From Candidatus Enterococcus huntleyi (GTDB lineage Bacteria; Bacillota; Bacilli; Lactobacillales; Enterococcaceae), in NCBI RefSeq assembly GCF_009933175.1, contig NZ_MAEJ01000001.1, positions 270,238 to 334,237 on the forward strand: 64,000 bases of DNA, written 5' to 3'. A program made the position numbers and the translations under genes. The notes beneath the pieces were generated by a model, which saw only the letters and a program-made list of their open reading frames with translations, was not told the origin of the DNA and did not search any database. Below, in pieces: positions 50,610 to 51,918 of this stretch (positions are counted from its first letter, which is position 1; every line of letters starts with the position of its first letter).

Positions 50610-50706
50610 GTCAACACATAGTCGTACTTGGAAAAAGAATGTCAGCTAGAAAAAGAGGGCAGAAGCTCCCTTCAAAAGCGTGGCTGTGAAAAAGAAAATC
50701 TCCAAT

Positions 50707-50903
50707 TGTGGATAACTATTTTTTTTGACAGTTAGAAAGAGTAAAAAGATGGGTGAAAGTAAGTTTTCATTGAATATAAAAAGTTATTAACAGAGTTATG
50801 CACACTTGACAAATCGTTTATCCACAATCCGTGGATAAGTAAAGGTAAAAGTGGAAAATGACTCAGTTTTAGAAAAAAGGAGCTGTGGATAAGCTGTGGA
50901 TAC
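50707..50903. promoter_or_regulatory. DnaA-box cluster in front of ywlC
   Basis: Perfect TTATNCACA boxes on either strand at 50707-50715, 50796-50804, 50818-50826 and 50884-50892, with one-mismatch boxes at 50784-50792, 50830-50838 and 50895-50903. Two further perfect boxes lie inside the gene at 51111-51119 and 51226-51234. Such density is far above chance for a 9-mer. The 286-base gap has no gene. From memory, DnaA is reported to bind near ywlC in Bacillus subtilis as well. Confidence 0.82.
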
Positions 50904-51918
50904 AAAAATATATCAAGAAGTTGAACTTGTCGAGGCGGCGCATCAAATAGCTGAGGGACAGTTGGTCGCTTTTCCGACAGAAACGGTCTATGGATTGGGC
51001 GCTAATGCGCTATTAGAGGATTCTGTTCGTCAGGTATTTGAGGTCAAAGGTCGACCGAGTGACAACCCGTTAATTGTGCACGTGGCTGACTTTTCCCAAG
51101 TAGAGGAGTATGTGGATAACTTTCATCCGCTGACAAAAAAAATTGTGGCTAATTTTTGGCCTGGACCGTTGACATTGATCTTTTTTATCAAAAAAGCTAG
51201 TTTACCATTGGTGGTAACAGGTGGGTTATCCACAGCTGCGTTTCGGATGCCAGATAACAAAAAAACGCTTGAATTTATCAAATTAGCAGGTGTACCAATT
51301 GTTGGCCCAAGTGCGAATACTTCTGGAAAACCGAGCCCAACGACAGCGCAGCATGTTTACCATGATTTGAAAGGCAAAATTGCTGGAATTTTGGATGATG
51401 GTGCAACAGAGATTGGTGTGGAATCGACGGTCTTAGATATTAGTGATCCGACAAAGCCACCGATGATTTTACGTCCAGGCGCGATTACGAAAGAAGCACT
51501 TGAGGCTGTTTTGAAAACGACGGTTGAGGTGGATCGTCATTTGGTGGAAGAAAATGAAGTACCTAAATCGCCGGGGATGAAATATAAACATTATTCGCCG
51601 GATACCAAGGTCTTGATGGTTCGTCCTGATGACTGGCAAGCAGCCCTTAAAGTGAGCCGTGAAAAAGGCTTGAAGATTGGGATTTTAGCTAGTCCAAGTG
51701 TTGTGAGTAGCTGGGGAAATCAAGCAGAAGCTAGCTTTTCTTATCAGGAGAATACGATTGAAGCGGCTACTAGAGGCTTGTTCGCAGGACTTAGAGCGTT
51801 GGATGAGGGCACTGATTTAGATGTGATTTTAGCTGAGGCTTTTCCTGAAGAGGGTTTGGGGATTGCTTATATGAATCGTTTGAAAAAAGCCGCCGCTCAA
51901 AATTTTTTTGAAAAGTAG
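50896..51918 (+). CDS. ywlC: L-threonylcarbamoyladenylate synthase (Sua5/YwlC)
   Basis: 340 residues: an N-terminal YrdC-type domain (about 5-200; FPTETVYGLGANAL and KGRPSDNPLIVHV) and a C-terminal Sua5 domain (about 225-335) joined by the SPGMKYKHYSP linker. It makes threonylcarbamoyl-AMP for the t6A37 modification of tRNAs reading ANN codons. The GTG start at 50896 overlaps a DnaA-like box, as does much of its upstream region, so DnaA may regulate it. The ribosome site is AAGGAGC. Confidence 0.94.
   Translation: MDTKIYQEVELVEAAHQIAEGQLVAFPTETVYGLGANALLEDSVRQVFEVKGRPSDNPLIVHVADFSQVEEYVDNFHPLTKKIVANFWPGPLTLIFFIKKASLPLVVTGGLSTAAFRMPDNKKTLEFIKLAGVPIVGPSANTSGKPSPTTAQHVYHDLKGKIAGILDDGATEIGVESTVLDISDPTKPPMILRPGAITKEALEAVLKTTVEVDRHLVEENEVPKSPGMKYKHYSPDTKVLMVRPDDWQAALKVSREKGLKIGILASPSVVSSWGNQAEASFSYQENTIEAATRGLFAGLRALDEGTDLDVILAEAFPEEGLGIAYMNRLKKAAAQNFFEK

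What the first reader, a model, noticed from the sequence alone, without database searches (positions are those of the whole stretch)
50707..51234. Dense DnaA-box cluster at ywlC, far from an origin
Six perfect TTATNCACA boxes and three one-mismatch boxes in about 530 bases, two of the perfect ones inside the gene. There is no dnaA or dnaN here, so it is not oriC. In Bacillus subtilis DnaA is reported (from memory) to bind near ywlC too; conservation at the same locus would point to a DnaA-titration or timing site, or to cell-cycle control of t6A synthesis.
Basis: partly seen in the sequence, partly recalled or inferred. Interest (0 to 1): 0.68.

Follow-up and report, generated by a model that had tools for sequence, protein, structure and literature searches.

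The report
Conserved DnaA-box cluster at ywlC
Next to a tRNA-modification gene in this Enterococcus lies a dense cluster of binding sites for DnaA, the protein that starts chromosome copying; relatives across two orders keep it, down to codons inside the gene, mostly when the gene sits near the replication origin, so it probably helps time replication by holding DnaA.

Summary
In detail: six perfect TTATNCACA boxes lie in 50707-51234, plus four (not three) one-mismatch boxes. At the genome's own box density 0.027 are expected. New here is the comparison. The cluster is orthologous across Enterococcaceae, another Lactobacillales family (f44) and many Bacillales. They share a 42-43 bp core (box, 12-13 bp, box, 3 bp, inverted box). 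In 399 Bacilli genomes, 7 of 8 exact copies of that core lie at ywlC. The two boxes inside the gene are kept at codon level: 42 of 49 sequences encoding Leu-Ser-Thr use exactly TTA TCC ACA, against 1.4% expected. Retention follows origin distance: in Lactobacillales, 21 of 24 genomes with ywlC within 22% of dnaA have the cluster, against 2 of 37 further away. A second cluster at rlmH shows the reverse pattern in the lineages where ywlC lost its own. This favours an origin-proximal DnaA reservoir over regulation of t6A synthesis alone. No binding or function was measured in this organism; tree-corrected support is modest (p 0.04-0.06). New member of a known kind (B. subtilis DnaA-box clusters).

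The parts
50610..50895 (.). prmC-ywlC spacer that holds most of the cluster
   Evidence: Spacer length in relatives predicts the cluster: 150 bp or more, 76 of 81 loci have at least 2 boxes; under 60 bp, 0 of 82
50707..50715 (-). perfect DnaA box (TTATCCACA), -189 from the ywlC start
   Evidence: same position in E. phoeniculicola and E. casseliflavus
50784..50792 (+). one-mismatch box (TTATTAACA)
50796..50838 (.). conserved core: box A(+), 13 bp, box B(+), 3 bp, box C(-)
   Evidence: present upstream of ywlC in 33 of 65 representatives, none in 762 kb elsewhere in the same loci; 7 of 8 exact copies in 399 genomes are at ywlC
50796..50804 (+). perfect box A (TTATGCACA)
50806..50811 (+). TTGACA between boxes A and B; conserved in many Enterococcus and in family f44; resembles a -35 hexamer but no well-spaced -10 was found
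50818..50826 (+). perfect box B (TTATCCACA)
50830..50838 (-). one-mismatch box C (TTATCCACG)
   Evidence: perfect in E. casseliflavus relatives
50884..50892 (-). perfect box between the ribosome-binding site and the start codon of ywlC
50895..50903 (-). one-mismatch box overlapping the GTG start codon
   Evidence: the start codons are the most synonymously conserved window of the gene
51111..51119 (-). perfect box inside ywlC (GTG GAT AAC, Val-Asp-Asn)
   Evidence: 23 of 31 VDN sequences, 20% expected
51144..51152 (-). one-mismatch box inside ywlC (TTAGCCACA)
51226..51234 (+). perfect box inside ywlC (TTA TCC ACA, Leu-Ser-Thr)
   Evidence: 42 of 49 LST sequences, 1.4% expected
50896..51918 (+). 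ywlC, threonylcarbamoyl-AMP synthase (Sua5/YwlC type, TsaC function)
   Evidence: Pfam Sua5_yciO_yrdC and Sua5_C; TIGR00057
49770..50609 (+). prmC, upstream neighbour
   Evidence: TIGR03534

Best explanation
The cluster is the ywlC member of the extra-oriC DnaA-box clusters known from B. subtilis. DnaA binds cooperatively to the boxes and is held there. Because ywlC lies in the origin-proximal part of the chromosome in the lineages that keep the cluster, the site is duplicated soon after initiation, so free DnaA drops just then and premature re-initiation is damped. When rearrangement carries the locus away from oriC this use is lost: the spacer collapses, the boxes inside the gene decay, and the role falls on other origin-near clusters such as the one at rlmH. 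Shown: the boxes, their cross-order homology, selection on the DNA of the coding boxes, the association with origin distance, and the ywlC/rlmH trade-off. Inferred: DnaA binding in this species, titration as the selected function, and the order of loss.
For: Density far above chance. Shared core and fixed positions across Enterococcaceae, family f44 and Bacillales. Codon-level constraint at +330 and +215. Lactobacillales with ywlC under 22% from dnaA: 21 with and 3 without; 22% or more: 2 with and 35 without. Reverse pattern at rlmH with htrA-rlmH synteny intact: the E. quebecensis group (g8) has ywlC at 28-39% with 0 boxes and rlmH at 9-12% with 6-7 boxes, and g2 and g13 behave alike; the E. 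casseliflavus group (g5) has ywlC at 11% with 6 boxes and rlmH at 24.5% with 0. In B. subtilis DnaA binds the ywlC and yydA/rlmH regions strongly (PMC4447404), and removing six such clusters causes early initiation (PMC5295017; PMC13220808).
Against: Tree-corrected association is modest: p = 0.059 for 85 Bacilli and 0.038 for 61 Lactobacillales, with the 22% cut chosen after seeing the data. Exceptions: G018 has the cluster at 38% (scaffolded draft); families f6, f23, f4, f8 and genus g100 lack it although ywlC is near oriC. Exact positions relative to the gene are more than pure titration needs. In B. [quoted passage not shown] Origin distance in the window's own genome is unmeasured.
Confidence: 0.6

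Rival explanations
1. The cluster is mainly a DnaA-controlled operator of ywlC: DnaA covers the TTGACA element, the ribosome-binding site and the start codon and represses the gene, tying t6A synthesis to the replication state.
For: B. subtilis ywlC is repressed by DnaA (PMC4447404; PMC12112137). Boxes flank TTGACA and overlap the start region. Positions relative to the gene are fixed, and the spacer disappears together with the boxes.
Against: It does not predict loss with distance from oriC or the trade-off with rlmH, a gene of different function. Boxes at +215 and +330 lie far inside the gene. No convincing -10 element was found. ywlC is kept in nearly all these genomes while the cluster is repeatedly lost.
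Confidence: 0.25
2. The cluster is inherited and lost passively: ancestral boxes survive where prmC and ywlC keep separate promoters and vanish when the genes fuse into one operon; origin distance is a by-product of phylogeny.
For: Spacer length predicts the boxes almost perfectly; tree-corrected p values are only 0.04-0.06.
Against: Synonymous constraint on coding boxes shows active selection on DNA. The E. casseliflavus group lost the rlmH boxes while the htrA-rlmH spacer persists (194-367 bp). A long spacer does not explain its being filled with DnaA boxes.
Confidence: 0.12
3. Chance clustering, or a cryptic or former replication origin.
For: AT-rich spacer; DnaA boxes are also the mark of oriC.
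Against: Expected 0.027 boxes against 6 observed; conserved across orders; dnaA, dnaN and their own box clusters are elsewhere.
Confidence: 0.02

Closest known systems
B. subtilis extra-oriC DnaA-box cluster at ywlC (one of the strongest DnaA-binding regions, PMC4447404)
   Same: Same gene, same place upstream of ywlC, similar number of boxes; strong DnaA binding and repression shown in B. subtilis
   Different: Here in an Enterococcus, with prmC directly upstream, TTGACA embedded in the core, and two codon-constrained boxes inside the gene; binding not measured
B. subtilis DnaA-box cluster at yydA (rlmH)
   Same: An orthologous-looking cluster exists upstream of rlmH in this genome (L083) and in most Enterococcaceae genera sampled
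   Different: Its boxes are kept or lost in the opposite pattern to those at ywlC across several Enterococcus groups
E. coli datA
   Same: Non-origin DnaA-box cluster that limits initiation; its distance from oriC is conserved among E. coli strains (abstracts of PMC4585315 and PMC5010248)
   Different: datA promotes hydrolysis of DnaA-bound ATP; nothing here suggests that, and no sequence homology was looked for

Membership tests
Bacillus-type extra-oriC DnaA-box cluster | Several perfect DnaA boxes within a few hundred bp, outside oriC | tested here: met
   6 boxes in 528 bp; dnaA/dnaN on another contig
Bacillus-type extra-oriC DnaA-box cluster | Orthologous chromosomal location to a B. subtilis cluster (upstream of ywlC) | tested here: met
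   PMC4447404 Table 1; YwlC family assignment; shared core with named Bacillaceae. The B. subtilis sequence itself was not fetched.
Bacillus-type extra-oriC DnaA-box cluster | DnaA binds it | not testable with these tools
   Known for B. subtilis only; needs ChIP-seq or IDAP-seq
Bacillus-type extra-oriC DnaA-box cluster | Loss of the clusters advances initiation | not testable with these tools
   Shown in B. subtilis for removal of six clusters (PMC5295017)
Bacillus-type extra-oriC DnaA-box cluster | Origin-proximal location | tested here: inconclusive
   Met in most relatives with the cluster; the window's own genome is a draft with dnaA on another contig
Replication origin (oriC) | dnaA/dnaN neighbourhood with the associated boxes | tested here: not met
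   No dnaA/dnaN among the ORFs around the cluster; dnaA and dnaN with seven perfect boxes lie at C32:18-20 kb (L089)
datA-type DnaA-ATP hydrolysis site | IHF site and stimulation of DnaA-ATP hydrolysis | not tested
   No assay; B. subtilis lacks IHF and datA (PMC13220808)

The most novel reading that the evidence does not exclude
Bacilli keep a quota of origin-near DnaA-holding sites that moves between loci: when rearrangement takes one site (ywlC) out of the origin-proximal region it decays, including its boxes inside the protein-coding sequence, and another (rlmH) carries the load. The codons of a tRNA-modification enzyme are thus shaped by replication timing.
Probability: 0.45. Interest if true: 0.8.

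Novelty: new member of a known kind. Interest (0 to 1): 0.62.

Why it matters
Whether the DnaA-box clusters of B. subtilis matter for initiation control is disputed: one review says none with a significant role has been identified, another cites early initiation when six are removed (PMC5295017, PMC13220808). Conservation across two orders, selection on codons, and retention tied to origin distance argue that they do, and give a prediction that can be tested by moving or deleting a defined 530-bp element. They also show a coding sequence constrained by replication control.

Tried and rejected
Chance was rejected by density and conservation. oriC was rejected because dnaA/dnaN are elsewhere. 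A sigma-70 promoter around TTGACA was looked for, but no -10 with 16-18 bp spacing was found, so the promoter stays unknown. A link through t6A alone was considered (in B. subtilis another cluster lies by gcp, the t6A partner gene) but not supported, since rlmH behaves the same way and no paper linking threonylcarbamoyl synthesis to DnaA control was found in the held library. An uncorrected Spearman or Fisher test on origin distance is strong but ignores phylogeny, so the tree-simulated p values are quoted. The key paper (Okumura 2012) was not held and is cited through reviews.

Full report
Observation. Six perfect TTATNCACA boxes lie between 50707 and 51234, two of them inside ywlC, with four one-mismatch boxes between them. 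The window has eight perfect boxes in all and the assembly 175, so about 0.03 would be expected here. The genome is an Enterococcus close to E. phoeniculicola: YwlC is 75% identical to it, and only one other genome of the genus is held, which matches E. phoeniculicola by position. dnaA, dnaN and their boxes lie on another contig (L089). The gene is a Sua5/YwlC-type threonylcarbamoyl-AMP synthase between prmC and glyA.

Known background. In B. subtilis the region upstream of ywlC is one of the eight strongest DnaA-binding regions (9 sites, apparent Kd 0.25 uM) and the region upstream of yydA (rlmH) is another (PMC4447404). ywlC is repressed by DnaA (PMC12112137). A strain lacking six such clusters initiates early (PMC5295017; PMC13220808).

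Conservation. Named loci with clusters include E. phoeniculicola, E. casseliflavus and E. alcedinis, and among Bacillaceae Lederbergia citri, Fredinandcohnia quinoae, Bacillus kwashiorkori, Virgibacillus and Neobacillus; named loci without include E. quebecensis, E. moraviensis, Carnobacterium jeotgali, Lactobacillaceae and clostridia. Within Enterococcus the boxes recur at the same offsets from the gene (-189, -100, -78, -66, -12, +215, +330). A core of three boxes (A, 12-13 bp, B, 3 bp, inverted C) is shared by Enterococcaceae, family f44 (genome size and origin distance suggest Listeriaceae, not verified) and Bacillales: 33 of 65 representatives have it, mismatches allowed, and it is absent from 762 kb of flanking positions scanned on both strands. 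In 399 Bacilli genomes the exact core occurs eight times, seven of them just upstream of ywlC. The window's core has one mismatch in C and is not counted among the eight.

Selection on coding boxes. At +330 the codons TTA TCC ACA are kept in 42 of 49 Enterococcaceae sequences that encode Leu-Ser-Thr (1.4% expected from codon use), while the neighbouring Gly and Ala codons vary freely. Apart from the start-codon region, itself part of a degenerate box, this is the most synonymously conserved stretch of the gene. At +215, 23 of 31 Val-Asp-Asn sequences keep GTGGATAA (20% expected). In Bacillales two boxes near the start are encoded as Val-Asp-Asn/Lys and Tyr-Pro-Gln. These counts are over related sequences and are not independent.

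Origin distance. dnaA was located in complete or near-complete genomes. In Lactobacillales with ywlC closer than 22% of the genome to dnaA, 21 have at least two boxes and 3 do not; further away, 2 have and 35 do not. Simulating the trait on a YwlC tree gives p = 0.059 for all 85 genomes and 0.038 for the 61 Lactobacillales. Genomes without the cluster have prmC and ywlC almost touching: spacer under 60 bp, 0 of 82 loci with two boxes; 150 bp or more, 76 of 81.

A second site. A cluster upstream of rlmH (L083) is found in most Enterococcaceae genera sampled. The E. casseliflavus group (g5) has ywlC at 11% with six boxes and rlmH at 24.5% with none, although htrA and rlmH are still adjacent. Genus g6 has neither.

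Interpretation. The simplest reading is that these are origin-near DnaA reservoirs, used to keep free DnaA low after initiation and kept only while the locus is near oriC. Control of ywlC by DnaA, real in B. subtilis, may be an accompaniment. Limits: no binding or function was measured in any Enterococcus; the 22% cut was chosen after looking; several Bacillales families lack the cluster despite origin-near ywlC; and the origin distance in the window's own draft genome is unknown. Gene direction and positive GC skew in the window are consistent with the fork passing from low to high coordinates.

Noticed in passing
L083:5521-6158 (own genome C1:103.5-104.2 kb): Second DnaA-box cluster between htrA and rlmH; orthologous to the B. 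subtilis yydA peak and kept or lost in the opposite pattern to ywlC among several Enterococcus groups.
   Followed up: yes
L090:5546-5890 (own genome C32:60.5-60.9 kb): Four perfect boxes in a long intergenic region about 40 kb from dnaA, including TTATCCACA followed by an inverted near-box; another likely DnaA-box cluster.
   Followed up: no
L086:6550-6630 (own genome C8) and L348 (G004): Boxes between a glutathione reductase-like gene and a U32-type peptidase gene; in G004 an exact copy of the three-box core lies beside the same pair, the only exact copy in 399 genomes that is not at ywlC.
   Followed up: partly
L085:5976-6134 (own genome C8): Three TTATCCACA boxes on the same strand within 160 bp inside mutL.
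   Followed up: no
L168-L198, near the start of ywlC in Bacillales: Two boxes 30 bp apart are encoded in the N-terminus of YwlC (Val-Asp-Asn/Lys and Tyr-Pro-Gln), so the protein sequence itself seems shaped by DnaA boxes.
   Followed up: partly
own genome (G000): TTATCCACA occurs 59 times against 25 for the reversed control pattern, so this box is over-represented genome-wide.
   Followed up: no
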